A stretch of DNA of 64,000 nt, from positions 2,032,001-2,096,000 of the forward strand of contig NZ_UHFH01000003.1 of assembly GCF_900459225.1 (NCBI RefSeq), read 5' to 3'. The translations under genes and the position numbers were made by a program. The DNA comes from Streptococcus dysgalactiae subsp. dysgalactiae. Its GTDB lineage: Bacteria; Bacillota; Bacilli; Lactobacillales; Streptococcaceae. Within the stretch, counting starts at the first letter, position 1; the number at the start of each line of letters is the position of its first letter. Below are positions 15,065-56,152 of the stretch, piece by piece. Below the pieces are notes generated by a model, which was not told the DNA's origin, ran no database searches, and was given only the letters and a program-made list of their open reading frames with translations.

Positions 15065-15066
15065 CC

Positions 15067-18278: not shown

Positions 18279-18284
18279 AGTAGG

Positions 18285-18385
18285 GTCGTGTAGACGGCAA
18301 ATACTCATTCTAGACCAATTGTGGGCTTGTTGCCGCTAGGTTAGCCTGCAAGTCGAAGTTTAGAAGAGGGAAAAACATTTTATAA
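18285..18385 (+). ncRNA. rpsB 5' leader, possible S2 autoregulatory RNA
   Basis: About 100 transcribed bases, relatively G+C-rich compared with the flanks (GTGGGCTTGTTGCCGC, GGTTAGCCTGC), lie between the candidate promoter and the rpsB RBS. Ribosomal protein S2 represses its own operon through such leaders in other bacteria. I can see potential short stems but cannot fold it with certainty. Confidence 0.35.
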
Positions 18386-18399
18386 AGGAGAAACTACTC

Positions 18400-19167: not shown

Positions 19168-19226
19168 TTAGCACAGAGTTTCTAACTCTCGTGACAAACT
19201 TCGTTTGTCTTTAACAATCGAAAACC

Positions 19227-19266
19227 AAACGGGGCAGAAAGCAAACCGCTCTGTCTCGTTTTTTTA
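19227..19266 (+). terminator. Internal terminator between rpsB and tsf
   Basis: AAACGGGGCAGA (about 19227-19238) pairs, with two G-U wobbles, to TCTGTCTCGTTT and is followed by TTTTTTT. An upstream hairpin, GACAAAC-TTC-GTTTGTC, precedes it. It probably reduces read-through from rpsB into tsf, allowing different levels of S2 and EF-Ts. Confidence 0.7.
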
Positions 19267-19300
19267 AACGAAAACAAACATAATTTGGAGGATACTACAC

Positions 19301-20341
19301 ATGGCAGAAATTACAGCTAAGCTTGTAAAAGAATTACGTGAAAAATCTGGTGCCGGCGTTATGGACGCTAAAAAAGCACTTGTTGAAACAGATGGTGACA
19401 TGGACAAGGCCGTTGAACTTCTTCGTGAAAAAGGAATGGCTAAAGCAGCTAAAAAAGCTGACCGTGTTGCTGCTGAAGGTTTAACTGGCGTTTACGTTCA
19501 TGGCAACGTTGCTGCTGTTGTTGAAGTTAACGCTGAAACTGACTTCGTTGCTAAAAACGCACAATTCGTTGAATTGGTAAACGCAACTGCTAAAGTAATC
19601 GCAGAAGGCAAACCAGCTAACAACGAAGAAGCTCTTGCACTTGTAATGCCTTCTGGTGAAACACTTGCTGACGCTTACGTTAACGCAACTGCTACTATCG
19701 GTGAAAAAATCTCATTCCGTCGTTTTGCTTTGATTGAAAAAACTGACGAGCAACACTTCGGTGCTTACCAACACAACGGTGGCCGTATCGGGGTTATCTC
19801 AGTTGTCGAAGGTGGCGATGATGCTCTTGCTAAACAAGTATCAATGCATATCGCTGCAATGAAACCAACTGTTCTTTCATACACTGAACTTGATGCACAA
19901 TTCATCAAAGACGAACTTGCTCAATTGAATCACGCTATCGAACTTGACAACGAATCTCGTGCAATGGTTGACAAACCAGCTCTTCCATTCTTGAAATACG
20001 GTTCAAAAGCTCAATTATCAGACGACGTGATTACTGCTGCTGAAGCAGACATCAAAGCTGAACTTGCTGCTGAAGGAAAACCAGAAAAAATCTGGGACAA
20101 AATCATCCCAGGTAAAATGGACCGCTTCATGCTTGACAACACTAAAGTTGACCAAGCTTACACTCTTCTTGCACAAGTTTACATCATGGACGACAGCAAA
20201 ACTGTTGAAGCTTACCTTGACTCAGTAAACGCTAAAGCGATTGCTTTTGCACGTTTTGAAGTTGGTGAAGGTATCGAGAAAAAAGCTAACGACTTCGAAT
20301 CAGAAGTTGCTGCTACAATGGCTGCTGCCCTTAACAACTAA
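19301..20341 (+). CDS. tsf: Elongation factor Ts
   Basis: 346 residues, the long streptococcal form. It catalyses GDP/GTP exchange on EF-Tu. The N-terminal UBA-like domain ([26 protein letters not shown]) and the core motif [13 protein letters not shown], which contacts the EF-Tu Mg site, are intact. The C-terminal half includes the internal duplication found in Gram-positive EF-Ts. RBS TTTGGAGGA. High-expression codon bias. It ends before a strong terminator at 20367-20403. Confidence 0.99.
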
Positions 20342-20366
20342 TCACTTTTTTCTAATAAGTATCAGA

Positions 20367-20403
20367 AAAAGACAACCTTCCGGTAGGAAAGTTGTCTTTT
20401 TTT
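20367..20403 (+). terminator. Terminator of tsf
   Basis: AAAAGACAACCTTCC and GGAAAGTTGTCTTTT form a stem with one mismatch around GGTA-like loop bases, followed by TTTT. A classical intrinsic terminator. Confidence 0.9.
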
Positions 20404-20437
20404 ACCTCATCTTTTCTAAAACAAGCATCTCACTAAG

Positions 20438-20471
20438 TAAAAAACTGATCCTGTGTTTCACAGAATCAGTC
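20438..20471 (-). terminator. Terminator of pepO
   Basis: In the minus direction ACTGATTCTGTG pairs with CACAGGATCAGT around AAA, followed by TTTTTT. It lies 44 bases past the pepO stop codon. Confidence 0.88.
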
Positions 20472-20514
20472 ATTTTTACAATCACAGGCATTTGAAGGTT
20501 TATCAACTACCTAC

Positions 20515-39499: not shown

Positions 39500-40771
39500 T
39501 TATAGCAAATTTTCAGGTTTTAATAAAGTTTTACGGACCATATTAAAAGCATGTAAAGTCGCAATATGACGCACATCTGAACGGCTCCGTCTCCCGATTA
39601 AAACCTTCATTGATTCTACCTTATTTTGAGTGGCAAGACCAATGAAAACTGTACCTGCAGGCTGGTCCTCCAACATATCTGGTCCGGCAACACCTGTTAA
39701 ACTTACCCCAATATCAGCACCAGTCAATAATCTTGCTTGCTCCGCCATCTTCTCAGCCGTATAAGCACTAACAACTCCATACGATGTCAAATCCTCTAGA
39801 GGAATGCCTAGCATTTTCGCTTTTTCTTCCATGCTATAAGTCACAAAGCCTCCATTGAATACTTGAGAAGCTCCTGGAAAACTCGCCAAAGTTGACTGAA
39901 ATAATCCCGCGGTTAGACTTTCTGCTGCTGTAATTGTCTTATCATATTTTACTAAGAGCTCAAATACCTCACGCGCTAAGGAATTATCCTCTCTATAGCC
40001 ATAAAGAAAATCTGATAACGACTGGTTGTCAGGAGTTTTTCGCGACAATAGCTGCGCTTCTAGTTGATCTAATTTCGTATCTGCTAATGTTTGATTTTCA
40101 GCTTTCGTTGATAAACGAAGGGTCACTTCACCAGTTTTGGCATAAGGTGCAATGGTAGGGTCAGTTTGATTCTCAATAAGGTCTGATAAGACCGTCACCA
40201 GCTGACTCTCACCAATCCCAAAAAATCGTAAGACTCTCGAGTAAAGTTTGCGAGATTGTGTGGACAAAAGAGGAAGCAGTTCCTCATTAACCATAGGTTT
40301 TAATTCACTTGGCGGCCCTGGTAAAACAACATAAGTCACCTTATTAACAGTGATTAAGCCCCCCACTGCGAGTCCTGTTCTATTTTGCAGAGGGCTTGAA
40401 CCAGCAATGATTTGAGCCTGCTTAGCATTATTTGCCGTTCGAGACGACTCTTTACGACTGGCATAAAAATCGTCTAATTTTTGACTAGCTTGTTCTTCAA
40501 AGACCAAATCTCTATTAAGGTATTTTGCTAAAGTCTGCTTGGTTAAATCATCTTCCGTGGGGCCAAGACCACCACATAAAATGACCAAATCACTCCGCTG
40601 ACTAGCAGTTGCAATCACTGAAAGTAAACGCTCCTCGTTGTCCCCAACAGCCGTTTGAAAATAGACATCAATACCTAGCTCTGCCATTTTTTCCGACAGA
40701 AATTGAGCATTAGTATTCACAATTTGACCAGTCAAAATTTCGGTACCTACTGCAATCAGTTCAGCTTTCAT
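39500..40771 (-). CDS. cinA: Competence/damage-inducible protein CinA
   Basis: 423 residues, full length. The N-terminal COG1058 domain (about 1-170) has [17 protein letters not shown] and [12 protein letters not shown], a nucleotide-binding/pyrophosphatase fold. The C-terminal PncC domain (about 260-410) has [13 protein letters not shown] and [16 protein letters not shown] and deamidates NMN in related proteins. In pneumococcus it brings RecA to the membrane during transformation. A perfect SigX box sits 17 bases upstream. RBS GGTGGGGAA. Confidence 0.97.
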
Positions 40772-40788
40772 TTCCCCACCTACTTATC

Positions 40789-40796
40789 TATTCGTA
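40789..40796 (-). promoter_or_regulatory. SigX (ComX) CIN box of cinA-recA
   Basis: TACGAATA on the minus strand is the exact late-competence combined box recognised by the alternative sigma factor SigX in streptococci. It lies between a terminator (40820-40848) and the cinA RBS, and an A+T-rich tract with T-run precedes it, as usual for these promoters. Confidence 0.88.
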
Positions 40797-40817
40797 ATCT
40801 AATTTCATTTTATCAAA

Positions 40818-40850
40818 AAATCTCCCAATTCACGACGAATTAGGAGATGG
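40818..40850 (-). terminator. Terminator of the mutL-to-VOC operon
   Basis: ATCTCCTAATTC and GAATTGGGAGAT (minus sense) flank a five-base loop and are followed by TTTTTT. It separates the repair operon from the cinA promoter. Confidence 0.92.
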
Positions 40851-40894
40851 TATCGTTACTTGTTTTCTATTCTGTTGAGAGTGATGTAGAAAAT

Positions 40895-41248
40895 CTAGTC
40901 TTCACTAAATTGGTAGAAATCAAGCATCACACCCTCTGGTCCTTCCACCCAGACCGAGTAGGTTCCCCATGCCGTCTTGACTGGACCATTATTAATAGTA
41001 AAACCTGAGGATTTTAAGCGTTCAACTTCCTTGTCAACACAGTCAACTTCAATATGAAGAATGATACCTCCGTGAAGTGACGTAATGGGTTTGAGGGGGT
41101 TATCTGATACCATTAAACAATGACTACCTAAAGTGAACTGTGCAAAATGCTCATCTGCACAATCCACAGCTAAGTTAAGCAGTGATGCCAAAGCTTGGGT
41201 AGCCTTTGGAACATCTGAAACAATAAGATCCGTTTGGTTAAGATTCAT
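40895..41248 (-). CDS. VOC-family (glyoxalase-like) protein
   Basis: 117 residues, one vicinal-oxygen-chelate domain. It has paired beta-alpha modules: IVSDVPKATQALASLLNL and LHIEVDCVDKEVERLKSSGF, ending with WVEGPEGVMLDFYQF, where Glu or Asp could be a metal ligand. It could be a glyoxalase, a bleomycin-binding or a lyase-type protein; the substrate is unknown. The ATG at 41248 is preferred to an adjacent GTG because it stands six bases from GGAG. It overlaps the tag end region closely. Confidence 0.75.
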   Translation of the reverse strand: MNLNQTDLIVSDVPKATQALASLLNLAVDCADEHFAQFTLGSHCLMVSDNPLKPITSLHGGIILHIEVDCVDKEVERLKSSGFTINNGPVKTAWGTYSVWVEGPEGVMLDFYQFSED

Positions 41249-41250
41249 CA

Positions 41251-41823
41251 CTATCTCCTTTTAGTTGTTATTAACTTAAAAGCACACGTTTCTTCATGGT
41301 CATTTACCAGACCCGATGCTTGCATAAAAGAATAAACCGTTGTAGGTCCTAAAAATCTAAATCCTCTTTTCTTTAAATCCTTAGCTAAGCGAACAGATAA
41401 ATCTGTCTGAGCAGGAACAGGGTGCTCTTGATTGACAAGGTTGTCAATTGGCTTTCCCCCAACAAAATCCCAGAGATAAGTGGTAAAACTACCAAATTCT
41501 TCTTGAATTTTCTGTACTGCGATAGCATTGTTGACAGTTGCTGCTAACTTTAGCTTGTGGCGGATAATGGATGGATTCTGTAATGCATCAGCCATCTCCT
41601 CATCGGTAAAGGCTGCCACAGCCGAAATGTCATAATCATGAAAAACAGTTCTGAAAGTTTGGCGTTTTTTCAAAACCGTCAGCCAGGATAACCCGGACTG
41701 GTAACTTTCAAGGCACAGCAATTCAAAAAAATCTCTATCATCATCCAGGGGTTGACCCCATTCTAAATCGTGGTAATCACAGTAAAGCTGGTTATCCTTA
41801 GGAACCCATGAGCAACGTTTCAT
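41251..41823 (-). CDS. tag: DNA-3-methyladenine glycosylase I
   Basis: 190 residues. It removes 3-methyladenine from alkylated DNA. MKRCSWVPKDNQLYCDYHDLEWGQP matches the Tag N-terminus with one zinc-ligand Cys, FELLCLESYQSGLSWLTVLKKR is the helix-hairpin region, and the C-terminal HEETCAFK gives the other zinc ligands. A GTG at 41832 directly follows the ruvA stop, but the family alignment and RBS favour the ATG at 41823. Confidence 0.92.
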   Translation of the reverse strand: MKRCSWVPKDNQLYCDYHDLEWGQPLDDDRDFFELLCLESYQSGLSWLTVLKKRQTFRTVFHDYDISAVAAFTDEEMADALQNPSIIRHKLKLAATVNNAIAVQKIQEEFGSFTTYLWDFVGGKPIDNLVNQEHPVPAQTDLSVRLAKDLKKRGFRFLGPTTVYSFMQASGLVNDHEETCAFKLITTKRR

Positions 41824-41832
41824 GTGAAACAC

Positions 41833-42426
41833 CTACCCTTTCATTAACAGTTTCAATGCTGATTTGATGTATTGCTCTGCCGTCTCAGAGGTCCCCTCAA
41901 AGAAGGCACGAATTTTTTTCAGTTCTGTTGCTTTATAACCTAGGGCAAGAAGGGCTTCAATAGCCTCATCCAACTCGTCATTGTTTGAGGAGGTAGGTGG
42001 TTGTGCTTTACTAGTCTCTTGTGGAACCTCCACAAATTTTCCGGCTAAGTCAAGAACCATCTGTTGTGCCGTTTTTTTTCCGATTTTAGGAAATTTAGTC
42101 AGGTATTTGATGTCACTGGTATCAATGGCGTTAACAAGACCCCGATTATCATCAACTGCCACAATAGCGAGAGCTGTTGTCGGACCAATGCCTGATACAG
42201 AAATTAATTTCAGAAAAACATCTTTTTCGTCTTCCGTATGGAACCCAAACAACAAGTGAGCGTCCTCACGAATCACTTGATGCAGGTAAATAGTTACCAG
42301 TTGGTTGACACTATCTGTAAAGCTATAAGGATTGGCTACATTGATAATATAGCCCAGTCCATTGGTTTCAACGACAATGTATTTTGCCGTAATTTTGGTC
42401 AATTGACCTTTAATATAATCGTACAT
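41833..42426 (-). CDS. ruvA: Holliday junction branch-migration protein RuvA
   Basis: 197 residues. Domain I is the OB fold [30 protein letters not shown]. Domain II has two helix-hairpin-helix motifs, [16 protein letters not shown] and [19 protein letters not shown]. Domain III at the C-terminus ([19 protein letters not shown]) contacts RuvB. ruvB is not in this window. It is separated from lmrP by one base, so translation is coupled. Confidence 0.97.
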
Positions 42427-42427
42427 A

Positions 42428-43648
42428 TTACACCTTTTTCATTTTTGCAGAAACAACCGTAAAATAAACTCCTAGCAAAGCAATGACTACAAATAAACAT
42501 TGCACGCCTAAAGGACCTGTAAAATGGCTGACAGATACTAGTAGGCTAGCTAAAATAGCTCCTAGGGGGTGTGCCATTGACACAAAGCCTGTGTAAGAGC
42601 CTATTTTGGAATGATCCATCATATTAGCGCGTAAGACTTGACTAGCAGGGACGTTTATCATTTCCCCAAAAGTTAGCAAAACAACTGATAGCCAGATAGC
42701 ATAGAGCTGCGTAAAGGTAAATGCCAAGAGCATACCTAGAGTAAATACTAAAGAACCAATCACAAGTTGAGGCAATAGTTTCCATTTTTCAGTTAATTTA
42801 TTCACTATTGTCATGAAAAGAACAATCAACAATGTATTGGTAAAAACCATTAATGACAACATTTTAGAACTAGTTACCTGGAAACCTAACACGGTAGTTG
42901 GCTGAAAATACAGTTTCAAATGTACTGGCACATAGTTATCCATTTGCATCCAGATACTACCAGAAAAGATGGCACCTAAGGTAAACAAGACAAAGGCACG
43001 ATCATGAAACACCTGACGATAGTTCTGAAAACTATCCAGCAAGCCTTTACCATGGTCAAAAGCGTGTGTCTCTGGTCTGGTCTCATCAAAATAATAATAA
43101 GCAACGCCAAAACAAAGTACATTGACGAGTAATAAGGCAACTAACAAGGCTAAAAAATGGTGGTCATAAAAAAGCCCAGATAGCCCTGCACCAAACATGA
43201 CGGCAATATTGATAAACCAATAATTGATGGTGTAAACAAATCGACGATTACTCTCATCAGTCAAATCAATCAACATGGCTTCATAGGCAGGACCATAAAA
43301 ACTAGAAGCAATCTCTACCAATAAAATACCAGCAAATGTTAACCAAGGAATAGCTGCATTAGGCAAATTAGCTAAAATAGTCAGAAACCAGCCTAGTGTT
43401 GTTCCTACTGATCCAATCATAATGACTTTTTTGCGACCAAGAGCATCTGACAGATGCCCACCATATAAAGTTCCAACAAATCCCATCAAACTGGTAATCA
43501 TCATTAAAAGGCCTGTCCAAAAAGTACCAAAGTAAGTCGTATAATACATGGCCATAAAGGGAAAGATACTACTGCCTAAGGTAATGGTCACAAAGCGTAC
43601 CAGTTGCCTCAGCTGAATCTGCTTGGGAAGGTTTAAAAACTCTTGCAT
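42428..43648 (-). CDS. lmrP: MFS multidrug transporter, LmrP-like
   Basis: 406 residues, twelve hydrophobic segments, major facilitator superfamily. The loop 2-3 motif [17 protein letters not shown] is the canonical drug-transporter signature. Its position between mutL and ruvA is the same as lmrP in the S. pyogenes mismatch-repair operon, which supports the name. It should export lipophilic cations or drugs in exchange for protons. The function in repair, if any, is unknown. Confidence 0.88.
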
Positions 43649-43658
43649 CTCATCCTCT

Positions 43659-45644
43659 CTAATATTTTCCTAGTTCTCGCAGGCTAGTATGATTTTCTTG
43701 GATACGACGGAACATTTTTTCCATATCTGCTTTACTGAAATTAATCAACACGGGTCTACCATGAGGGCAGTTATAAGGATTTTGACATTGCGCCAATTGC
43801 AGCAGCAGATTTCTTGCTGAATAATCATCCAAGCTATGATTTGCCTTGATAGATCGTTTACAACTCATCATAATAGCTAACTCTGCTCGGTAAGTTTTGA
43901 TAGATACCTCATTGGTTAGAAGTAACATGTCACACATTTCATAGACACCAGATGCAATCTCTTCTTCTTTCATCCAGATAGGATGCTCCCTCAAGATGAA
44001 AGTATTGTGCCCATACACTTCCAGAAAGATGCCAACTTCATTTAAGAGTGCCATTTTCTCCTGTAAATTAATGAAATCCGAGCCGGAAAACTCAAACAAA
44101 TAGGGCACCAACAATTGCTGTAAACTACTGTCAACTTCACCTATCTTATCACGATAATATTCGTATTTAACCCGCTCTTGGGCAGCGTGTTGGTCAATGA
44201 TAAATAAACCATCTTTTCCCTGAGCAAAGAGATAAGTGCCGTGCATCTGACCAAAATAATCCAATTCAGGAAATACCGATCGCTCTTCATTTTCCAAACG
44301 GGTTAGCATTTGAGATAATTTCTGTTTGTTTTTCAAATCAAATCCAGGGTGATCAGCATCAGTTACCTCATCCTGTGATCGACTAGCACGTTTTACTGAG
44401 GAAAATCTTGTATTCTCTCCTAAATCAGGAAACTGCTCCGTTCTTTGATCCTTTACAGTCTTGTCAATCTCTGTATCATGAAAATTACTCTCAGGCAGTT
44501 TTTCAGAAACGTCTGATTCTTTGACAAAAAAATCATTCTTTTGAGGATCATAATAAAGCCCTTTAGATTGTAATGGAAGTTGTGTTTGCTCTGGTTTAGA
44601 AAAGTGTCGTGTGCTTGATTTAGCTAAGTTCTCCAGAGCATCTGGAATCAAATCTTGCTCCTTAAGACTTTCAGAAATCGCCGTACTAATTAAAGCCATC
44701 AACTCACGCTCTTTTGAAATACGGACCTCTTGCTTAGTAGGGTGAACATTGACATCGGCCAAATAGGGGTCAATCTGAATATCAATCACAACAATTGGGA
44801 AACGTCCAACCATCAACTTAGAGCCATAACCATCTAAAATAGCCCGATTGAGCAAGAAATTTTTAATGTAGCGTCCATTGATTAAAATGGTCATATAATT
44901 GCGGTTAGCGCGTGTCAACTCTGGTAAACTGACATAGCCAGACACTTCAAAGTCCAAATCAGCACTGGAAATAGGAATCATTTTCTTCGCAGTATTCAAG
45001 CCATAAATGCCCGCAATAGCCTGCCGAAGATCTCCCGTCCCTGACGTCTGAGTTAATTGACGGCCATCACTAATCAGGGTGAAAGCAATTTCTGGATGAG
45101 CCAAACTCAAACGATTAACCACATCAACAATATGAGCTAACTCTGCCTGTAAACTTTTCATGTATTTGAGGCGAGCAGGTGTATTATAAAAAAGGTTTTC
45201 AACCTTAATCTTGGTACCTACAGGCGTCGAGGTTTCCTCAAGCGTTTCAATCTCTCCACCAGTTGCAATTAGTAGAGAGCCATAAGCAGCTTCCTTAGTA
45301 GCTGTTTTTATCGTAATTTTGCTGATAGAAGCAACCGATGGTAAAGCTTCTCCCCTAAAACCAAGCGTTCTAATTCGAAAGAGATCACTCTGATTTTTGA
45401 TTTTACTGGTCGCATGTCGCCGCAAGCTCAAAGGGAGATCTTCAGATGACATCCCTTCACCATTGTCCGTAATCTGTATCTTTTTGAGACCAGACTCTTC
45501 AATATCAATGGTGACTTGGCTACTCTTAGCATCGATAGCATTCTCAACCAATTCCTTGACAACACTCGCTGGCCTTTCTACAACTTCACCAGCTGCAATT
45601 TGGTTGGCGAGAACTTCTGGTAATTCAATAATTTTTGATATCAT
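43659..45644 (-). CDS. mutL: DNA mismatch repair protein MutL
   Basis: 661 residues. The N-terminal GHKL ATPase has [17 protein letters not shown] and [11 protein letters not shown] variable linker (about 340-460) precedes the C-terminal endonuclease domain with [16 protein letters not shown], which fits the DQHA-x2-E-x4-E metal site, and CPHGRP near the end. RBS AAAGAG is weak. In S. pyogenes it is read from the mutS promoter; here 5.2 kb of accessory DNA separates the two, and I see no strong promoter upstream. Confidence 0.97.
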
Positions 45645-45787
45645 TATTTTTAACTCTTTCTAATGTTGATATAACAACTCTTATGGTCAATCGACTTCTG
45701 ATCAAATGCTCATTCATTAACTCACAAGTTATACATGGTATTTTCATAGTAGGAAACATTCTCTTTTTCTTTGACCCCGGCACATCC

Positions 45788-46246
45788 TAAAGTAATACTG
45801 GAGTTTTTTGCAGCGAAACACCAGTTTTCACAAAGAAACTAGTGTAGGTATAGGCAAAATCTTTAAGAGTAACATGTAGACTACTTAGCTCTTTCCTATA
45901 CTCTCTTATTTAGAGGGTTTCTCTAACAGAAATCTCAAAAGAGTTTCTGGTAAGCATCCTAAGCACTACTTTTGGCACACCTATCAGTCTCAGTGAATAC
46001 TTGTCACTATCTTTTTGTGATAGGTTTAGTTTTTATTAACCATTGATTGCTTCTGACCGATTTATTTCCTTCCTCTATCTTAGCGGTAATCAAAACCGTC
46101 AACCTTTTATAATAAATTTTACTAATAACTATTGTACCATTTTTTAAGTTAATATCTCCCCATTCTAACGTATAGAGTTCTCTTATCGTTATATCCATAG
46201 ATAGTAAACACTGATAAAAAACCATCGCAAAACATAAGCGATCTCA
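45788..46246 (-). pseudogene. Decayed tyrosine recombinase (phage-type integrase)
   Basis: A minus-strand frame (46225-46007) reads ...LCFAMVFYQCLLSMDITIREL then LEWGDINLKNGTIVI, matching the Arg-box region of tyrosine integrases (LxxTGxRxGELxxLxWxDID). About 100 codons further on (45876-45788) HVTLKDFAYTYTSFFVKTGVS resembles the H-x-x-R-H-T-x-A box, but the catalytic Arg and His are replaced. Several stops and a frameshift break the gene. It begins next to mutL, the same side as SpyCI integration in S. pyogenes. Function is lost. Confidence 0.65.
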
Positions 46247-46830
46247 CTTAGCTTACATCTTTTTTCTATATTCTGAAATAAGTCAAGAATGTCAGTTGGC
46301 AATTAAAAGACAATTATCAGTCACTACGGGTCTAAAATCGCTTGAATTTAAGATTTAACGACCTTTATCAATATGGTGTAGATGTTTCTTCCTAATCAAC
46401 AAACAACTTGACGTAAAGCATAGCTACCTTCTAAAAGAGCCGTTCATCATCAAATATATGAACAAGAAGCACTCTAAAAATACTATTAGATCCTTAAGAA
46501 AAAGCCTTAATAAGCGCCTATAGAAGCACTTACTAGAAACTAAAATTGATGTTACATTACCTCAAAAAGACTTTAGTTAAATGGGTAAAACTGTCCAGGT
46601 TCTTAGAAAAATAGAACTCTCGGAGTGTAGTCATATAAAAATCCAAGAATTTAAACTTTTGAATGTTTATGATTACTTTCATGAATCAAACTAAATTATT
46701 GCAAGAATATTAATTCACAGAAACTAAGGATTTTATGTGAAAATTACGTTTTCTAAACAGTTTTCTCTTAATATAATGCAAATAAAAACTAATATTCTCA
46801 ACGCTTATTTCATATTAGGTCATAAAACGA
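46247..46830. other. Decayed non-coding stretch between integrase relic and surface protein
   Basis: About 580 bases of low-G+C sequence with many stops in all frames. A fragment near 46459-46578 reads KIDVTLPQKDF after frame interruptions, reminiscent of a PheS motif but too short to trust. No intact gene, clear terminator or repeat was found. Confidence 0.35.
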
Positions 46831-46835
46831 ACAAC

Positions 46836-46880
46836 TCTCTAAATAATGAACTTAGAGATAAATTAGATTTATAGTATAGT
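46836..46880 (+). promoter_or_regulatory. Promoter and operator-like repeat of the surface protein
   Basis: TTAGAG (46852-46857) and TATAGT (46875-46880) are 17 bases apart. The inverted repeat TCTCTAA (46836-46842) - nine bases - TTAGAGA (46852-46858) covers the -35. A nearer TATAAT (46899-46904) would leave no room for the RBS. Control by an unknown regulator is likely. Confidence 0.45.
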
Positions 46881-46924
46881 ATTTATTGCTAAATTAACTA
46901 TAATGATGTGAAGGAATTGTGAAA

Positions 46925-49900
46925 ATGACTAACTGTAAGTATAAACTACGAAAATTATCTATTGGTCTTGTTTCGGTTGGAACCATGTTTATGGCAGCAC
47001 CTGTTATGGGAGAGGACGCTTCTCAATCAACTGCTTCCCGTGAGACCCCCTCGGCCTCGTCAACTACCACTTCGTCGACAACACAAAGTGAAGAGAGTCA
47101 AGATTCTAAAGAGACGGAAGTTCCTGTTACTAAAGCTCTTGAAGTAGCCGAGCCAACAACAGCCCCTAAAGAGGCTAGCCCCGCTCCACTAAAGGCTGAA
47201 GCAGCTAACCCCTCTGGTCAAGCTGCAGCTCCTACTAACACTGGTCAAACGGGCTCTCCAGAGCAAGCTCTTTCACGCACCAAACGTTCAGCGGAAGAAG
47301 CTCAAAAAACCATGGAAGTAGAAAAAATCCAGGTTGATAAAGAAAAGTCAGAGGTTACAGTCTCTGATGGAACTGGCAAAGAGAAGCTTATTAAAAATCG
47401 TGACGATAAACAACGTGATATTTTTGATGTCAAGAGAGATGTAGTCGTCGATCCGGATGGAAAAACCCTCAATGTTACTTTAACAGTTACCCCTAAAGAG
47501 ATTGACAAGGGTGCAGAAGTTATTGTTCTCTTAGATACTTCTCAAAAAATGACTGATACCGATTTCAATACTGCAAAAGAAAAAATCACAAAGCTAGTGA
47601 CGACGCTAACAGCTAAGAATCTCAGCCAGGATGATAGCACTCCAAACTATAATGGGCGAAATTCCGTGCGGTTGATTGACTTTTATAGGAAGGTAGGAGA
47701 GTCTACTGATTTATCTGGCTGGGATGAAAAAAAAATCGAGGAAAAACTTGATGAAGTCCGTAAAAAAGCTCAAAAAGACTATAATGGATGGGGCGTAGAT
47801 CTACAAGGAGCTATCCATAAGGCTCGAGAGATTTTTAATTTAGATAAAGAAAAGAACTCTGGTAAGCGCCAGCATATCGTGCTCTTCTCTCAAGGAGAGT
47901 CCACCTTTAGTTATGCTCTAAAAAAAGGAGAGAAAGAAAAATTACGAAAAGTAGCAGTTGAAGGACCAGTCACTTACAGTAATCCTCTTCTATTTTGGCC
48001 TTTTTACTTTGATACCACAACTAAAACGCATAATGTGGTTGAAGATGCAAAAGCAATGATCGCATTTTTAAATAAATTCGGTATTACTCAATTTGACAAT
48101 GCTGTTGATGATTTTGCCAATAATGGAAATAGTCTACTTTCGTTTTTTAATGATACTTTTGGTATAAAAAATCCACTAGATTATATTACGACGGCAGATT
48201 TAGATACTAGTGAGTTGAAATCAGAAAAGTTTGACTATTTGAATCAATTGGGTGAAGGTTATAATTTCAGAACATATGCCAATAGAGAGGTTGATAGCGT
48301 AGGTTTTAAAGAGGTTTTAGCAAAAAAAATTAAGGAAAACCTAAAGAAGTTCCAACCTAAACAAGCAGATACCTGGTTAAGTTCTTTGGGATTGAATAGT
48401 ATCAAAGAAAACATCCAAGATTGGATGATTGATCAAGCGCTTGATAATCTCTTTTATCGTCGCCAGTACCAATTTTATAACCACAATCTCTCTGCCCAAG
48501 CAGAAGCTAAAATGGCTAGAGAAGAAGGGATTACTTTTTATGCATTTGATGTCACAAAGCCAGAGCTTTTTTCAAAGAGGGAAAAAGAATTTAAGGATAA
48601 AGGAAATAGTAAAGAATATAAAGATTATTTAGAGAAAAGATATGAAAAAGAAAGTAAAGATTATGAAAAAAGAAATAATGAATTTGACAAATATCTGAAA
48701 GAAATGTCTGAAGGACAGAAATTCTTTGAAGAAGTTGAGAATGCTGATAAATTTAAAGATATCCTAACAGAGGTGAAATTGACTGAAACCTTTACTGATA
48801 AGGTAACCGTTGAAAAAAAATCATGGGAAGATAAAAGCAATAAAGGGAAAGTTCAGCATCAGGAAGCAGGTACTACAAGCTGGTTCTTCTTGTTATCATC
48901 TTCTACTCCAGAAAGTCTAACTTGGACAATCGATAAAGATGCACTTAAAGAAGCCTTCGAGAAAAGGTTACCATTGACCTTAACTTATAAGTTAAATGTT
49001 AATAAAGAAAAGTTCAAGTCAACGCCTCAAACAAGAGCAAAACGTTCTCTAGAAACACTGGAGAGCAGTAAAGCAACTGAAAAGGCGATATCTGGCAAGG
49101 TCACTTACAAGATTAATGATAAAGAAGCTAATGGCAATAATAAGTTAGAAGATGTGACATTGACTTATAGCAAAGTAACAGTTCCTATTCCAGATATTGA
49201 TGAGGAAATAGTGATTCCGCCAACACCGGAAAAACCTCTTGTAGAACCCATGTTGCCTTCACAACCATCTCTTCCAGAAATACCAATGCCAGAAGATCCA
49301 AGAGAGAGCGATCCTCAAATTATTAGTAACGATGGACTTATTGAGTTTACAGAAGATACTCAATCAGGTATGTCTGGTCAAAATCCTGGTTCTGGAAATG
49401 AAACAGTTGTTGAAGACACTCAAACAAGTCAAGAGGATATTGTACTTGGTGGTCAAGGTCAGGTGATTGACTTTACAGAAGATAGTCACCCAGGTATGTC
49501 TGGGGATAATAGCCATACAGATGGGACAGTGCTTGAAGAAGACTCTAAACCAAGTCAAGAGGATGAGGTGATAATCGGCGGTCAAGATCAAGTGATTGAT
49601 TTTATAGAAGATACTCAATCTGGTATGTCTGGGGATAATAGCCATACAGATGGGACAGTGCTTGAAGAAGACTCTAAACCAAGTCAAGGGGATGAGGTGA
49701 TAATCGGCGGTCAAGGTCAAGTGATTGACTTTACAGAAGATACCCAAACCGGTATGTCTGGGGCTGGACAAGTAGAAAATCCAACAATCACCGAAGAAAC
49801 CCATAAACCAGAAATTATCATGGGTGGTCAAAGTGACCCTATTGATATGGTTGAGGACACTCTTCCTGGTATGTCTGGCTCTAATGAAGCTACTGTTGTG

Positions 49901-50152
49901 GAAGAAGACACACGTCCTAAACTTCAATTCCATTTTGATAATGAAGAGCCCGTTCCTGCAACGGTTCCAACCGTTTCTCAAGCTCCTATTGCTCAGGTAG
50001 AAAGTAAAGTGCCTCATGCCAAAGCAGAGAGTGCGTTACCTCAAACTGGAGATACAAATAAACTAGAAACATTCTTTACCATTACAGCACTAACTGTTAT
50101 TGGAGCGGCAGGATTACTAGGCAAAAAACGTCGTGATAATCAAACTGATTAA
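46925..50152 (+). CDS. sof: Serum opacity factor/FnBA-type fibronectin-binding surface protein
   Basis: 1075 residues, sortase-anchored. The signal peptide (about 1-30) has a YSIRK-like YKLRKLSIGLVSVG. A Ser/Thr/Pro/Ala-rich region (about 30-125) is followed by a folded domain with a VWA-like strand VIVLLDTSQKM, whose metal site departs from DxSxS. Fibronectin-binding repeats of the GGQ...EDTQ.GMSG type fill about 810-1010. Then LPQTG, a hydrophobic segment and KKRRDNQTD. SOF opacifies serum by disrupting HDL and also binds fibronectin; FnBA of S. dysgalactiae is a close relative. ATG 46925 is nine bases from AAGGA. No sfbX follows. Confidence 0.72.
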   Translation: MTNCKYKLRKLSIGLVSVGTMFMAAPVMGEDASQSTASRETPSASSTTTSSTTQSEESQDSKETEVPVTKALEVAEPTTAPKEASPAPLKAEAANPSGQAAAPTNTGQTGSPEQALSRTKRSAEEAQKTMEVEKIQVDKEKSEVTVSDGTGKEKLIKNRDDKQRDIFDVKRDVVVDPDGKTLNVTLTVTPKEIDKGAEVIVLLDTSQKMTDTDFNTAKEKITKLVTTLTAKNLSQDDSTPNYNGRNSVRLIDFYRKVGESTDLSGWDEKKIEEKLDEVRKKAQKDYNGWGVDLQGAIHKAREIFNLDKEKNSGKRQHIVLFSQGESTFSYALKKGEKEKLRKVAVEGPVTYSNPLLFWPFYFDTTTKTHNVVEDAKAMIAFLNKFGITQFDNAVDDFANNGNSLLSFFNDTFGIKNPLDYITTADLDTSELKSEKFDYLNQLGEGYNFRTYANREVDSVGFKEVLAKKIKENLKKFQPKQADTWLSSLGLNSIKENIQDWMIDQALDNLFYRRQYQFYNHNLSAQAEAKMAREEGITFYAFDVTKPELFSKREKEFKDKGNSKEYKDYLEKRYEKESKDYEKRNNEFDKYLKEMSEGQKFFEEVENADKFKDILTEVKLTETFTDKVTVEKKSWEDKSNKGKVQHQEAGTTSWFFLLSSSTPESLTWTIDKDALKEAFEKRLPLTLTYKLNVNKEKFKSTPQTRAKRSLETLESSKATEKAISGKVTYKINDKEANGNNKLEDVTLTYSKVTVPIPDIDEEIVIPPTPEKPLVEPMLPSQPSLPEIPMPEDPRESDPQIISNDGLIEFTEDTQSGMSGQNPGSGNETVVEDTQTSQEDIVLGGQGQVIDFTEDSHPGMSGDNSHTDGTVLEEDSKPSQEDEVIIGGQDQVIDFIEDTQSGMSGDNSHTDGTVLEEDSKPSQGDEVIIGGQGQVIDFTEDTQTGMSGAGQVENPTITEETHKPEIIMGGQSDPIDMVEDTLPGMSGSNEATVVEEDTRPKLQFHFDNEEPVPATVPTVSQAPIAQVESKVPHAKAESALPQTGDTNKLETFFTITALTVIGAAGLLGKKRRDNQTD
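49366..49880 (+). repeat. Tandem fibronectin-binding repeats
   Basis: Five GMSG-containing copies are encoded, at about 49366, 49493, 49624, 49750 and 49869. Two central units of 129 bases (43 codons, starting about 49501 and 49630) are nearly identical, which points to a recent duplication. Each unit pairs a GGQxQVIDF strand with an acidic EDTQ/EDSK part, the pattern that binds fibronectin type I modules by beta-zipper. Confidence 0.85.
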
Positions 50153-50176
50153 TCAGCAGATTTCATCAAACGCTAT

Positions 50177-50210
50177 AAACAAGGCTAACATTTTAGCCTT
50201 GTTTTATATT
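50177..50210 (+). terminator. Terminator of the surface protein gene
   Basis: AACAAGGCTAA-CATT-TTAGCCTTGTTTTATATT, a perfect stem with a T-rich tail, 25 bases past the stop. Confidence 0.9.
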
Positions 50211-50800
50211 GTTTCACTGACCTCCAAAAGTTATGACTGTTTTAAAGGAGGTAGGCTAATCCTCAAAAGTAGTTAAGTTGAGAAACACCACATCACTTTA
50301 GTCTTACTGCGCATACTAAAAGCAAAAGATAATTAGGAGCACTTGCTAACTGGAAAAAATCAAATGCAAAGCTAGTTGCCAAAGAACTCTAGAAATCATA
50401 AATAGCACAATAGAACCCTCTATCAACGCTTTTTCAAAACAATAACTTTTCTAAATTATTGTCTAAAAATGAAACTTTAATACGTTATATTAGTTTGGTG
50501 ATGTCATGAAATACAGTAATAGAACAGCCATGCCAGTAAAGCTAAAAAAAACATCGTTGAAACACTAGTTTTTAACTATTGGACTTTTAAACGTAAAGGA
50601 CCTGCAAAGGTTCTTTTTATTCACTACTTTTAAACCTTTGAGAAGAACATATAAAATGTTAAAACTCATATCTCCTAATAGCTAATAATGTCAACACTTA
50701 AAATTGCCCAAGATAGTAAACAAGATATACTTTTAGCATCATTGACTGGCATTATGATGCCCATTACATTATATGATAGATAAAAGGACAATTGTACAAA
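50211..50800. other. Non-coding accessory sequence between surface protein and mutS
   Basis: About 590 bases without an intact gene. There is a terminator-like AAAGGACC-TGCAAA-GGTTCTTTTTATT at about 50595-50621 on the plus strand, and a possible but poorly spaced promoter at about 50459-50490. No transposase or repeat was identified. It looks like decayed island DNA. Confidence 0.4.
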
Positions 50801-50804
50801 CAAG

Positions 50805-50842
50805 AAAAAGAGCCTCCTTAAATAGAAGTACTCTTTTAATAA
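50805..50842 (-). terminator. Terminator of argR-ylbF-mutS
   Basis: AAAAGAG and CTCTTTTT arms (minus sense) close a loop of about 18 bases with short internal pairing, followed by TTTCTTG. It would stop mutS transcription before the accessory island. Confidence 0.55.
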
Positions 50843-50843
50843 C

Positions 50844-53399
50844 CTATAATAAGTTTTTCAATTCATATAACGCCGTCATAGCTTGCATTGGAGTCATGTT
50901 CATGACATCAATAGCTTCTAAAGTTCGTATAATTTCTTGAAACCTGTCCTCATCAGCAAAAAGTGATAATTGTTCCTTATGAGCTATATTAGTTTGCTCA
51001 ACTCTTAGAGAATCCGATATGAGGTCAGTTGATGGTGACTGTGCTTCAAATCGTGTAAGAACTGTGTCTGCTCTATTTAATAGAGACTCTGGCAGACCTG
51101 CTATTTTAGCTACATGAATACCATAAGATTTATCCGCAGGTCCTTGGGCAATCTTATGAAGAAAGGTAACATCACCACCTTTTTCAAGTGTTTCCACATG
51201 GACATTGATCAATCTTGTCAACTTCGTTGACAACTCTGTCAATTCGTGGTAATGCGTTGCAAACATGGTTTTTGCACCGATCCTATCATGAATGTGTTCG
51301 ATAATTGCCTGAGCCAATGCCATACCATCATACGTCGCTGTACCTCGTCCCAATTCATCAAATAAAATGAGAGAATTTTCACTAGCACGTTTGATCGCTT
51401 GATTAGCTTCCATCATCTCTACCATGAAAGTGGATTGACCGGAAATCAAATCATCAGCAGCACCAATTCGCGTGAAAATAGCATCAAATAAAGGCAAATT
51501 CACATAATCAGCAGCCACAAACGAGCCCATCTGGGCCATGATAACCGTTAAGGCTAGTTGTCTCATATAAGTCGACTTACCACTCATATTTGGACCTGTA
51601 ATCAATTGAATGCTTGTCTCTTGGTCAAAAGAGATACTATTTGGAATGTATTCCTTCACTCCCATAACCTTTTCAACAACCGCGTGACGACCTTCTTGAA
51701 TTGTAATCACATGATCATCATTGAAACTAGGCCGACTGTAATGGTTTGTCTCAGCAACAACTGCTAAACTTTGCAAGACATCAATCGTTGCCAAGGTTTT
51801 GGCAAGCTTCTGCAAACGATTAATATAGGTTTCAACTTGAGTTCGAATACGCATAAAAATATCGTATTCTAAACTAGCTGATTCTTCCCTAGCCTCTAAC
51901 ATCTGACCTTCAATCTTAGCCAATTCTGCCGTACCATAACGTTCGGAATTTTTTAAAGTTGCCTTTCTGAAAAAATGCTCAGGTACTAAGCTAAGATTTG
52001 AATTCGTAACGTGAAAATAATAACCATCTTTTTTATTGTAATCAATTTTTAGGTTATTAATGCCGCTGGCTTGACGCTCTTTGGCCTCAATATCCGCAAT
52101 CCAGCCTGTCCCCTCTCGCATTACTTTACGATAATGGTCCAAGCGCTCATCAAAACCATTGCGGATAATACTTCCCTCACTAATAGTTGCTGGTGCATCT
52201 GGATCAATGGCTGTTCTAATCAAGTATTCCAACTCAGGTAAACTGTCAATATCATTGACAAGTTTGTCAATATAAGGGCTGCTAAAAGACTCTAAAATAG
52301 CTTTGATATAGGGTACTTGGGCTAAAGTATGCCCCAATTGAAGTAAATCTTTCGGATTTGCCTTTCCAAAAGACACGCGACTAGATAAGCGTTCGATATC
52401 GTAAACACCTTTTAAGCTATTGCTTAAATCTGTTCGCTCAATAAAAGCATTCAGAAAAACTTGAATAATTTCTTGACGCTCTAAAATCGCTTCTTTAGAG
52501 ACCAAAGGTCGATCAATCCATGAGCGCAAAAGCCTCATCCCCATAGCTGTCTTGGTTTCATCTAAAAGCCAATAGAGACTCCCATGTTTTTTATTCGTTC
52601 TAGCATTCTCTACCAAATCTAAACTTGACTTAGTGGCATACGACATCTGCAAATAATCCTTGATTTCATAGTGAACCAAGGCTTGCAAGTGACTAAGTTC
52701 TCGCATTTGTGTTTTGTGAACATATTGCAAGAGTTTTCCTGCCGCTGTTAATTCTACCGTTGTCAATTGGCCGTCAATTAAAGATTTATCTTCATAGACC
52801 GTTTCCTCATAAGAAAGCAGCAAATTCATCTGCTTGACCAAAATCATCTGTTCTTCTTCAGATAAATCAAAACCTAGTAAGACTTCTTTTGCCTTGAGGT
52901 TTTGGATTTCGCTACGAACACTCGTAAAGTCCGCTAAATCTGTCACGCAAAATTCACCTGTGGACACATCCATATAAGCCAATCCATAACGAAAACCATC
53001 AAAGTCAACAGCTACCAAAAAGTTATTGGCGCTATCTGGCTTAGCTGAATCCACAACCGTTCCAGGAGTTATGACTTGAACAACTTCACGCTTCACCACT
53101 CCAACAGCTTGTTTGGGGTCCTCCATCTGTTCTGCGATAGCTACCTTGTAACCCAACTCAATTAACACATCAATGTATTGCTGGGCAGAATGATGTGGCA
53201 CTCCTGCCATTGGAATTGGATTTTCCGCATTCTTGTTGCGACTGGTCAAACCAATCTCTAAAAGTTGCGCTGCCTTGACAGCATCATCATAAAATAATTC
53301 ATAAAAGTCACCCATCCTGAAAAGCAAAAAAGCATCTGGATAATCTTTTTTGATGTCCAGATACTGTTGCATCCCAGGAGAAATGTTAGCTTTTGCCAT
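50844..53399 (-). CDS. mutS: DNA mismatch repair protein MutS
   Basis: 851 residues, full length. The mismatch-reading Phe and Glu are in RMGDFYELF (F-x-E). The ATPase has [13 protein letters not shown] (Walker A, about 605) and [14 protein letters not shown] (Walker B/signature), and the helix-turn-helix dimer contact is at the C-terminus. It recognises mispairs and recruits MutL. It overlaps the upstream ylbF-type gene by 14 bases. In S. pyogenes it heads the mutS-mutL operon; here the operon is split by a surface protein gene in the opposite orientation. Confidence 0.98.
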
Positions 53400-53739
53400 T
53401 CGTTAGCTCCTCGTTTAACTGTTCTTCTATACGTTTGGTAATGTATTGAATCAAATCACTTGCATCTTGCATTTTCTCACGATAATCATCAATTACTGGT
53501 TGGTGGTTGAGATGATGTTCTAATTCTTTGGCCTTGTTTGAAGACACAGCGGCAGCTTGATTTTTCGCTATCTTTTGGAATAGCTCCGCCTCTTGCTGAT
53601 AACGTTTCATCTGGTAAGCTTGGTCTTCAAACTGATCAAGCTGAGATAACTGTTGTTTGGCTTCTTTATAGGCAATGATGCTAGGGTGGGCATTGATAGC
53701 CACGATTAAATCCTTCAAGGCATTTTGATAGCTTGTCAT
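53386..53739 (-). CDS. YlbF/YmcA-family protein
   Basis: 117 residues, all-helical, charged, DUF964 family. It starts [26 protein letters not shown] and has a coiled-coil-like middle ([19 protein letters not shown]). In Bacillus the YlbF-YmcA-YaaT complex affects RNase Y and sporulation or competence. The streptococcal member has no known role. It overlaps argR by four bases and mutS by 14, so the three are translationally coupled. Confidence 0.85.
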
Positions 53740-54173
53740 AGGCCAGCTGCCAACTCTTTTTCAAAACGCTTGGCAATCTCTTCATCACGACAAATCACCA
53801 ATAAAGTATCTGCTCCTGCAATAGTTCCTAAGATATCTTCAATGTCGTCATTGTCAATCAGATTAGCCAACACATCAGCCTCTCCTAAGTTAGTGTGGAG
53901 AACAAGCATAAAACCAGCGCGATCAACTGATAACACATAAAAACGCACCTCAGGGCTAAAGGGGGTCGCAACAGGTTCAGACAAACTATAATAGAGTTTG
54001 CCTTGCTCATCCCTTAATTTCAAGAGACCAATTTCCCTCAAATCACGCGATAAGGTGGCTTGAGTGACGACAATACCTTCTTTTTGAAGGGCTTTCTTAA
54101 TATCTTCTTGTGTACCAATATGCTCCGCTTGAATGATTTGTTTAATTTGATGTTGTCGCTCTATTTTATTCAT
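53736..54173 (-). CDS. argR: ArgR-family arginine regulator
   Basis: 145 residues. The N-terminal winged helix has [23 protein letters not shown] and [14 protein letters not shown]. The C-terminal hexamerisation and arginine-binding domain has the [13 protein letters not shown] motif. It is one of several ArgR paralogues usual in pyogenic streptococci. It is divergent from argS, which it may regulate; a TGTATAATTAT sequence near 54190 resembles an ARG box. No strong RBS was seen. Confidence 0.93.
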
Positions 54174-54460
54174 AATAGATTACCCCAATTGTATAATTAT
54201 CCTCTCAAATTATAACAAAAAAACTATGTTTTTTCATCTTTCCCCTGTTATTTACTCCATTTTTTAAGAATACTAAAAAGAAACTTTACTAAAAACTATT
54301 GACGGTTATCGGCGTTTATCTTTTGACAACTTTTCTTAAAGTAATTTTGTAAATTAAGAAGCACCTTTGAATTTGACAGTATAAATTATCAATCCTCTCC
54401 TCGTTTATTTTAAAGAAATATGTTAGAATAGGGTGACAAACAATTTTTAGGAGACGCTGT

Positions 54461-56152
54461 ATGGATACTAAAACTCTAATCGCAAGTGAAATAGCCAAAG
54501 TTGTTCCAGAGTTAGAACAAGATGCTATTTTTAACTTGCTTGAAACCCCAAAAAATTCTGACATGGGAGACCTTGCCTTTCCAGCCTTTAGTTTAGCAAA
54601 AGTCCTTCGCAAAGCCCCTCAAATGATCGCAGGCGAATTAGCTGAACAAATCGATGCAAGCCAATTTGAAAAAGTCGTAGCTGTCGGCCCTTACATCAAC
54701 TTTTTCCTTGATAAAGCTAAGATTTCCTCACAGGTTCTTGAACAAGTGATTACAGCAGGTTCAGACTATGCTCAGCAAGACGAGGGTCAAGGCCGAAATG
54801 TTGCTATTGACATGTCAAGCCCAAACATTGCTAAACCATTTTCAATCGGTCACCTCCGCTCAACTGTTATTGGTGATAGCCTTGCTAATATCTTTGCTAA
54901 AATGGGTTATCAACCTGTAAAAATCAATCACCTTGGTGACTGGGGTAAACAATTTGGTATGCTAATTGTTGCCTACAAAAAATGGGGAGATGAAGCTGCT
55001 GTCCAAGCACATCCAATCGATGAACTCTTAAAACTTTACATTCGTATCAATGCTGAAGCTGAAACTGATCCCACCGTTGATGGAGAAGCTCGTGAATGGT
55101 TCCGTAAGTTGGAAGATAGCGACAAAGAAGCTACTGAATTATGGCAATGGTTCCGTGACGAGAGTTTGCTTGAGTTTAACCGTCTCTATGACCAGCTTAA
55201 TGTAACCTTCGATAGTTACAATGGTGAAGCCTTCTATAATGATAAAATGGATGAGGTTCTTGAGCTATTAGAAACGAAAAACCTTCTTGTAGAATCTAAA
55301 GGTGCCCAAGTTGTTAATCTTGAAAAATATGGCATTGAACATCCTGCCTTGATTAAAAAATCAGATGGCGCTACTCTTTACATTACCCGTGACCTAGCTG
55401 CCGCACTTTACCGTAAACGCACTTATGACTTTGCTAAATCCGTTTATGTTGTTGGTAATGAGCAAGCTGCTCACTTCAAACAATTAAAAGCAGTGCTAAA
55501 AGAAATGGGTTACGATTGGTCAGATGATATGACACACGTTGCTTTTGGACTTGTCACAAAAGGCGGTGCTAAATTATCAACACGTAAAGGTAATGTTATC
55601 CTTCTTGAACCTACGGTTGCTGAAGCCATTAACCGTGCAGCTTCTCAAATTGAAGCGAAAAATCCAAACCTTGCTGACAAAGAAGCCGTTGCCCATGCCG
55701 TTGGTGTTGGTGCCATCAAGTTTTACGATCTCAAAACAGATCGTATGAATGGGTATGACTTTGACCTTGAAGCCATGGTTTCCTTTGAAGGAGAAACTGG
55801 ACCTTACGTTCAATATGCTCATGCTCGTATCCAATCTATTCTACGTAAAGCTGACTTTACGCCATCTGCAACCACCACTTACAGTTTAGCTGATGCTGAA
55901 AGCTGGGAAATTATCAAACTTATCCAAGATTTCCCACGCATTATCAAGCGAACATCAGATAACTTTGAGCCTTCTATTATGGCTAAATTTGCTATTAACT
56001 TAGCCCAAAGCTTTAACAAATATTATGCTCACACTCGCATCCTCGATGACAACTCAGAACGTGATAGTCGCTTAGCCCTCTGCTATGCTACTGCCACTGT
56101 GCTTAAAGAAGCACTTCGTTTACTCGGTGTAGAAGCACCAAATGAAATGTAA
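54461..56152 (+). CDS. argS: Arginyl-tRNA synthetase
   Basis: 563 residues, class I. The N-terminal Add-1 domain leads to the HIGH motif variant SIGHLRST near residue 130; the KMSK signature is degenerate, as usual for bacterial ArgRS. The C-terminal anticodon-binding domain starts near residue 440 and ends EAPNEM, a typical end. It charges tRNA-Arg. The ATG follows TTAGGAG. An extended -10 (TGTTAGAAT) lies at about 54421-54429. Confidence 0.97.

What the first reader, a model, noticed from the sequence alone, without database searches (positions are those of the whole stretch)
45645..50843. Surface-protein island splits mutS from mutL
In S. pyogenes, mutS and mutL-lmrP-ruvA-tag are a transcription unit that SpyCI islands switch on and off by inserting at the 5' end of mutL (established knowledge). 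Here 5.2 kb lie between the genes, holding an integrase relic beside mutL and an oppositely oriented SOF/FnBA-type gene. mutL has no obvious strong promoter of its own, and mutS has a terminator. This looks like a fixed, decayed island that left a virulence gene and may have uncoupled mismatch repair from mutS permanently.
Basis: partly seen in the sequence, partly recalled or inferred. Interest (0 to 1): 0.75.

Follow-up and report, generated by a model that had tools for sequence, protein, structure and literature searches.

The report
Dead satellite island left adhesin gene
Between two DNA-repair genes of a Streptococcus dysgalactiae-like bacterium lies the wreck of a small phage-satellite island that appears to have brought in a surface adhesin gene and cut the repair gene mutL off from its usual promoter, so the repair genes probably rely on a substitute promoter today.

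Summary
The 5,199 bp between mutS and mutL hold the remains of a mutL-targeting satellite island (SpyCI type). An integrase relic beside mutL matches residues 211-394 of 394 of an intact mutL-site integrase (E 4e-15; 10 stop codons). The island's mutL-side arm abuts the mutL start codon (E 0.012). Its mutS-side arm lies beside mutS (E 2e-9; next hit in 64 kb 0.86). An intact 1077-aa SOF/FnBA adhesin gene lies between the arms, in the orientation and end slot of cargo genes of intact islands, and of SOF in one complete S. canis-type island. No replication gene was found.
New point: 34 of 39 mutS-mutL-linked Streptococcus loci carry a perfect TGnTATAAT within 110 nt upstream of mutL. The attachment site lies at the mutL start, so insertion separates mutL from this element, not only from mutS. 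The window lacks it, yet mutL is intact and looks constrained; substitute transcription is inferred, with one weak candidate site.
Untested: expression, mutation rate. Against: three genomes hold SOF here without island arms, and published work on S. pyogenes found a mutS-mutL polycistronic message and no separate mutL start. New variant of a known kind.

The parts
43659..45644 (-). mutL, intact (661 aa), followed on the same strand by lmrP and by the frames the finding calls ruvA and tag; N-terminus MISKII
   Evidence: dN/dS 0.07-0.11 against G091, G044 and L184
45645..45678 (-). island right (mutL-side) arm relic, abutting the mutL start codon; the usual TGnTATAAT of mutL is absent here
   Evidence: nhmmer E 0.012, best hit of 64 kb, model built without the window
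45725..46249 (-). integrase pseudogene, C-terminal half (residues about 207-394 of 394), 10 stop codons
46131..46139 (-). weak candidate substitute -10 element TGGTACAAT inside the integrase relic, about 495 nt upstream of mutL (speculative)
   Evidence: Highest-scoring -10 on the mutL strand between SOF and mutL by my own scan, without a shuffle control
46853..46880 (+). weak promoter-like site upstream of the SOF gene
   Evidence: the number of such sites is at chance level
46919..50152 (+). SOF/FnBA-type surface adhesin gene (1077 aa), presumed island cargo
50177..50204 (+). hairpin terminator after the SOF gene; the hairpin also folds on the other strand, facing transcripts from mutS
50562..50702 (-). 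island left (mutS-side) arm relic
   Evidence: nhmmer E 2e-9 (composition bias 20.7 bits), next hit in the window E 0.86
50717..50778 (-). possible remnant of the displaced native mutL promoter and attL
   Evidence: 12 of 1000 shuffles reach the alignment score against L223; 177 and 232 of 1000 against two other references
50806..50837 (-). hairpin after mutS (weak terminator candidate)
   Evidence: z -1.0
50844..53399 (-). mutS, intact (851 aa)

Best explanation
The interval is the fixed wreck of a mutL-targeting phage-satellite island. Shown: a SpyCI-type integrase relic and right arm sit against mutL, a left arm sits against mutS, and an intact SOF/FnBA gene lies between them; no other island gene was found there. 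Inferred: (1) the island inserted at the mutL start and carried the SOF gene in its mutS-side cargo slot; (2) insertion pushed mutL's own extended -10 element to the mutS side; (3) the integrase died and the core was deleted, so the island can no longer leave and the growth-phase switch is locked; (4) the adhesin gene was kept by selection; (5) the mutL operon is now transcribed from a substitute promoter in the 1.27 kb between SOF and mutL, perhaps in the integrase relic, independently of mutS.
For: Integrase relic E 4e-15 and 1.4e-15 in the whole genome. Both arms found with models that exclude the window: left 2e-9, right 0.012. Order mutS - promoter/attL - left arm - cargo - satellite genes - integrase - right arm - mutL in G091, and the same mutS-side end with a cargo gene pointing at mutS in the four island records whose mutS side I fetched. 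SOF itself is in that slot in G091, whose integrase is 99.7% identical to that of satellite phage Javan97 of S. canis. G160 shows an intermediate decay stage. Attachment site at the first 16 bases of mutL (PMC4689407 passage). The mutL -10 element is in 34 of 39 linked loci against 0.3 expected; it is absent at mutL in all four loci with integrase traces, and lies on the mutS side intact in L223-L226 and with one hexamer change in G091 and G160. mutL constrained like mutS.
Against: G051, G033 and G195 hold SOF between mutS and mutL with the native mutL element in place and no arms. Window and G091 SOFs are only about 49% identical and fall in different clades. SOF inside a complete island was seen in one genome only. 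No SOF in 50,697 phage records, in 79 integrase-bearing viral stretches or in 16 of their full records (the tool warns that this empty answer shows little). The attL core at mutS is only suggestive. The -10 element is also missing in 5 of the 39 loci and in G125, which show no integrase trace. Published work: no mutL start by primer extension in island-free S. pyogenes NZ131 (PMC3430984, section 18) and a polycistronic mutS-mutL message (PMC4689407, passage). No transcript data for this organism.
Confidence: 0.64

Rival explanations
1. Two separate events: the SOF gene entered the mutS-mutL interval by ordinary recombination, as in G051, G033 and G195, and a mutL island inserted and decayed independently.
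For: SOF lies between mutS and mutL without island arms in G051, G033 and G195; 4 of the 10 SOF-bearing genomes carry it at other chromosomal sites; the SOF tree does not group the window with G091.
Against: In the window SOF lies inside the two arms; a gene already on the mutS side of the mutL promoter would end up outside the left arm. The complete island of G091 has SOF in that very slot and orientation.
Confidence: 0.25
2. mutL is still transcribed by read-through from the mutS promoter, so nothing is uncoupled.
For: mutS and mutL keep their order and strand; in S. pyogenes the operon is reported as one message (PMC3430984 section 18; PMC4689407 passage); the mutS hairpin in the window is weak.
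Against: Such RNA would have to pass a strong hairpin at 50177-50204 and 3.2 kb antisense to SOF. 17 of 39 linked loci have a strict terminator after mutS against 0.3 expected, though the window itself does not.
Confidence: 0.1
3. The locked island silences the mutL operon and the strain is a permanent mutator.
For: Loss of the native -10 element; no convincing replacement by consensus scan; most integrated SpyCI tested gave mutators in S. pyogenes (PMC3430984, passages).
Against: mutL and lmrP are intact and the next two frames are open; mutL dN/dS 0.07-0.11, like mutS; strain Manfredo shows that a locked island can be bypassed (PMC3430984).
Confidence: 0.07
4. The integrase and arm matches are chance or belong to an unrelated phage.
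For: The right-arm match alone is marginal (E 0.012), and the left-arm match has a high composition bias (20.7 bits).
Against: Three separate matches in the right order, strand and place; integrase E 4e-15, left arm E 2e-9 with the next hit at 0.86.
Confidence: 0.02

Closest known systems
SpyCI / mutL-targeting streptococcal chromosomal islands (SpyCIM1, ScaCI, SeqCI; satellite phages Javan97, Javan125, Javan168)
   Same: Site at the mutL start, integrase beside mutL, both arms, cargo slot facing mutS. A surface adhesin gene (ebhA) is already known as cargo of one SpyCI (PMC4129442).
   Different: Core genes gone, integrase dead, cargo is a large LPXTG fibronectin-binding protein; predicted unable to excise.
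SpyCIM5 of S. pyogenes Manfredo (locked island with cryptic promoter; PMC3430984, passages and section 18)
   Same: Integrase pseudogene, locked insertion, mutL presumably rescued by island-derived DNA.
   Different: Manfredo's integrase lacks only 128 bp. Its mapped promoter lies, by the primer position given, near the integrase 5' end, a part missing in the window, so a different promoter is needed here.
PauA/PauB locus of S. uberis between hexA and hexB (PMC2657157, passages)
   Same: Virulence gene between mutS and mutL, with phage insertion already proposed there as a source of variation.
   Different: Different gene (plasminogen activator).
SOF/FnBA fibronectin-binding opacity factors
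   Same: SOF domain, five stretches of Fn-binding repeat, LPXTG; nearest named relative is from S. dysgalactiae, 83%.
   Different: Location inside the remains of an island; S. pyogenes sof lies elsewhere (recalled).

Membership tests
SpyCI-type mutL satellite island | integrase of the mutL group beside mutL | tested here: met
   Relic only, residues 211-394, 10 stops
SpyCI-type mutL satellite island | insertion at the 5' end of mutL with a right arm abutting mutL | tested here: met
   45645-45678, E 0.012, best hit in the window
SpyCI-type mutL satellite island | left arm on the mutS side | tested here: met
   50562-50702, E 2e-9
SpyCI-type mutL satellite island | duplicated attachment core (attL) | tested here: inconclusive
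   12 of 1000 shuffles reach the score against L223; 177 and 232 of 1000 against two other references
SpyCI-type mutL satellite island | conserved replication/regulatory genes | tested here: not met
   No hit of island proteins other than SOF and integrase (and frames overlapping them) in the window interval: a relic, not a working island
SpyCI-type mutL satellite island | growth-dependent excision | not testable with these tools
   Predicted impossible: the integrase is a pseudogene
SOF/FnBA adhesin | SOF domain above curated cut-off | tested here: met
   NF040483 390 bits, cut-off 150
SOF/FnBA adhesin | Fn-binding repeats and LPXTG anchor | tested here: met
   PF02986 five stretches, PF00746
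SOF/FnBA adhesin | serum opacification and fibronectin binding | not testable with these tools
   Needs protein assays

The most novel reading that the evidence does not exclude
Streptococcal mutL has a widely conserved promoter of its own that mutL islands displace by inserting exactly between it and the coding sequence. SOF-family adhesins spread between pyogenic streptococci as cargo of these satellites. In this lineage the island died, kept the adhesin, and rewired the mutL operon to a promoter born inside the dead integrase gene.
Probability: 0.3. Interest if true: 0.72.

Novelty: new variant of a known kind. Interest (0 to 1): 0.55.

Why it matters
It would give a mobile origin for a major adhesin of S. 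dysgalactiae and S. canis, show what becomes of the SpyCI mutator switch when the island decays, and change the accepted reason why these islands silence mutL: loss of mutL's own promoter rather than only separation from mutS. Each step can be tested with simple RNA mapping and with existing genome collections.

Tried and rejected
Simple vertical inheritance of SOF between mutS and mutL through the whole pyogenic group: rejected. Of the 18 intervals compared (window plus 17 relatives, chosen as SOF-bearing genomes and the nearest MutL relatives) 6 hold SOF there, island-free genomes such as G044 have 129 bp, and the SOF tree does not place the window with G091.

Direct repeats at the junctions by blind repeat search: the SOF repeats and short families that look like chance (20 of 35 families shown). 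The arms needed models from relatives.

SOF in IMG/VR viral contigs: 5 pattern matches, none a relative. SOF in phage and plasmid records: none. RNA families in 40000-56000: none. Pfam and NCBIfam on five cargo-slot proteins: none.

That the Manfredo promoter is retained in the window: rejected, because by the paper's primer position it lies near the integrase 5' end, which the window lacks.

A literature report of SOF between mutS and mutL or in a mutL island: not found in the held library (searches). The main text of PMC4129442 holds neither 'fibronectin' nor 'opacity'; PMC8489961, the only hit, is unrelated. The papers and most were seen as listings only. Subscription journals are not held. 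A paper with a mapped hexB/mutL start: none found.
Full report
The host. The window is part of contig C3 of a 2.15 Mb genome. Its MutL is 98-99% identical to proteins named S. dysgalactiae and 97% to one named subsp. equisimilis. Its SOF-type protein is closest to S. dysgalactiae proteins, 83%. I treat it as S. dysgalactiae or very near it; no call names the genome.

The observation. mutS and mutL are intact, and 5,199 bp lie between them. The only long intact gene there is on the opposite strand, 46919-50152: a SOF domain (390 bits, cut-off 150), five stretches of fibronectin-binding repeat and an LPXTG anchor. SOF is convergent with mutS and divergent from mutL.

The two arms. In G091 the order is mutS, mutL-type promoter and mutL start remnant (attL), a left arm, a 316-aa gene, SOF, satellite genes, integrase, right arm, mutL. 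Four IMG/VR island records whose mutS side I fetched (L223-L226) have the same left end, followed by a 186-244 aa gene pointing at mutS; that these encode secreted proteins is my reading of their N-termini. Pfam and NCBIfam know none of the five slot proteins tested: G091, G018, L223, L224, L225. [quoted passage not shown] I built one model per arm from seven sequences each, none from the window. In 64 kb the left-arm model hits 50562-50702 at E 2e-9, with the next hit at 0.86; its composition bias is high (20.7 bits). The right-arm model's best hit is 45645-45678, E 0.012, ending at the mutL start. Order, strand and place are all as expected. Hits in the loci used for building are by construction. 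The duplicated attachment core near mutS is only suggestive (12, 177 and 232 of 1000 shuffles reach the score against three references).

Stages of decay in relatives. I compared 18 intervals: the window and 17 relatives chosen as SOF-bearing genomes and nearest MutL relatives, so the proportions are not a survey. Integrase traces occur in four: complete in G091 and G018, relics in G160 and the window. G160 keeps the left arm, the ends of a cargo gene and of two core genes, the integrase C-terminus and the right arm, a halfway state. G018 carries a broken SOF gene, then an old right arm with a mutL start fragment (E 5e-7), then a complete second island: two invasions of one site. No native mutL promoter was found in G018 on either side.

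Is SOF cargo? For: inside the arms in the window and in G091, in the same orientation as other cargo. PMC4129442 already lists a surface adhesin gene, ebhA, in one SpyCI. Of the 10 SOF-bearing genomes among 197 sampled in the genus, the window's own included, 6 have it between mutS and mutL and 4 elsewhere. The tree of 37 SOF proteins (28 picked by me from 120 listed hits, eight genomes and the window; quick method) puts the window in a clade of nine rows, all others S. dysgalactiae (support 100), and G091 in another clade with S. canis proteins and two of S. dysgalactiae. These two are 62% and 68% identical to the G091 protein and about 48% to the window's. So SOF lineages are shared between species, as mobile cargo would be, but more than one route to this site is likely. 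No SOF was found in 79 integrase-bearing viral stretches, in 16 of their full records (the tool warns that this shows little), or in 50,697 phage records. Such records may be trimmed to phage genes: Javan97 begins at the integrase and ends at the ArpU gene, the frame next to SOF in G091.

The mutL promoter. Among 80 loci fetched with MutL, 39 have a mutS match of over 60% identity on the same locus. Of these, 34 carry a perfect TGnTATAAT within 110 nt upstream of mutL, at 12 to 75 nt; Markov resampling gives 0.3 on average and 3 at most in 200 rounds. The five without are L002, L006, L020, L029 and L032; G125 lacks it too. The loci are not independent: seven share nearly one upstream sequence (five named S. 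oralis or S. mitis, two unnamed), and in L033 the element is too close to the annotated start. Seventeen of the 39 also have a strict terminator after mutS (0.3 expected). In the window, G091, G018 and G160 the element is missing at mutL. In L223-L226 it is intact on the mutS side of the island; in G091 and G160 it is there with one change in the hexamer. So these islands insert between this element and mutL. PMC3430984 (section 18) explains silencing by separation from the mutS promoter and reports no mutL start by primer extension in island-free NZ131, and PMC4689407 (passage) calls the mutS-mutL message polycistronic. Both speak against an active mutL promoter under those conditions; this stays unresolved.

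How mutL is expressed here. RNA from mutS would have to pass a strong hairpin (50177-50204; z -6.6 and -5.3) and the whole SOF gene antisense. The SOF-mutL gap has no promoter excess (7 found, 6.6 expected). The best-scoring -10 on the mutL strand is TGGTACAAT at 46131-46139 in the integrase relic (no shuffle control). It is also present at the same codons in the intact integrase genes checked, where it is ordinary coding sequence, so it is a weak candidate. mutL is nonetheless constrained: dN/dS 0.07 and 0.08 against G091 and G044, 0.11 against L184; mutS 0.05 and 0.10 against the first two (G160 and others saturated in dS). Pairwise values average both lineages and do not prove expression in this one. 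mutL and lmrP are confirmed by family models; the next two frames, called ruvA and tag in the finding, are open but were not searched. The precedent is strain Manfredo, where a promoter in the dead integrase drives mutL; by the primer position given there it lies in the 5' part, which the window lacks.

How widespread. Seven of the 120 listed MutL relatives begin with MISKII as in the window, including P0126 and P0127 named S. dysgalactiae (P0127: 54 contigs; P0122: 22; P0123: 43); five of the seven, P0122 and P0123 among them, are shown without source and may belong to the window's own or very near genomes. Other S. dysgalactiae MutLs begin MTKII or MTNII. P0124 (MISKII) and the SOF protein P0006 report the same longest contig length, 15,882, which suggests linkage but does not prove it. 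The relic is probably fixed in a lineage rather than in one strain; I could not read those contigs.

Known and new. Known: mutL islands and their mutator switch, in S. dysgalactiae and S. canis too (PMC4129442: abstract, passages, sections 6 and 8), the Manfredo rescue (PMC3430984: passages, section 18), the attB site (PMC4689407: passages), virulence genes and phage at the hexA-hexB site of S. uberis (PMC2657157: passages). Satellite prophages were surveyed in PMC6813308 (passages). Not found in the held library: SOF/FnBA as mutL-island cargo, or displacement of a promoter of mutL's own (searches).

Noticed in passing
L126 (G018:C43), oriented 3408-21073: Two successive islands at the same mutL site: an old right arm with a mutL start fragment beside a broken SOF gene serves as the left junction of a complete second island.
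   Followed up: partly
L132 (G160:C12), mutS-mutL interval of 2.7 kb: Half-decayed mutL island: left arm, ends of cargo and core genes, integrase C-terminus (65-70% identity), right arm; no SOF.
   Followed up: partly
L002 (S. didelphis) and L133 (G125), upstream of mutL: TGnTATAAT is missing and a TTTAGAA-type stretch resembling the island right arm is present; possibly older relics, but no hit of the arm model at E 1 or better.
   Followed up: no
Proteins P0149, P0150, P0153, P0161, P0164, P0166: MutL annotated as 673 aa with N-terminus MLYQRLESVKNKI: the extra residues are translated from the island right arm, so this annotation probably marks integrated islands.
   Followed up: no
L005 / L140 (S. 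pseudoporcinus): A second, incomplete SOF-like stretch lies between the first SOF and mutL.
   Followed up: no
window genome C3:277851-279032 and C3:478775-479956: Two intact integrases 65% and 61% identical to the mutL-island integrase; other satellite islands are likely present in this genome.
   Followed up: no
L223 / L184 (IMG/VR island record): MutL 97% identical to the window but the partial MutS on the other side only 86%; possible recombination around the island site.
   Followed up: no
window 49317-49829: Four direct repeats spaced 126-129 bp apart in the fibronectin-binding part of the SOF gene; a 217-aa open frame runs antisense to them.
   Followed up: no
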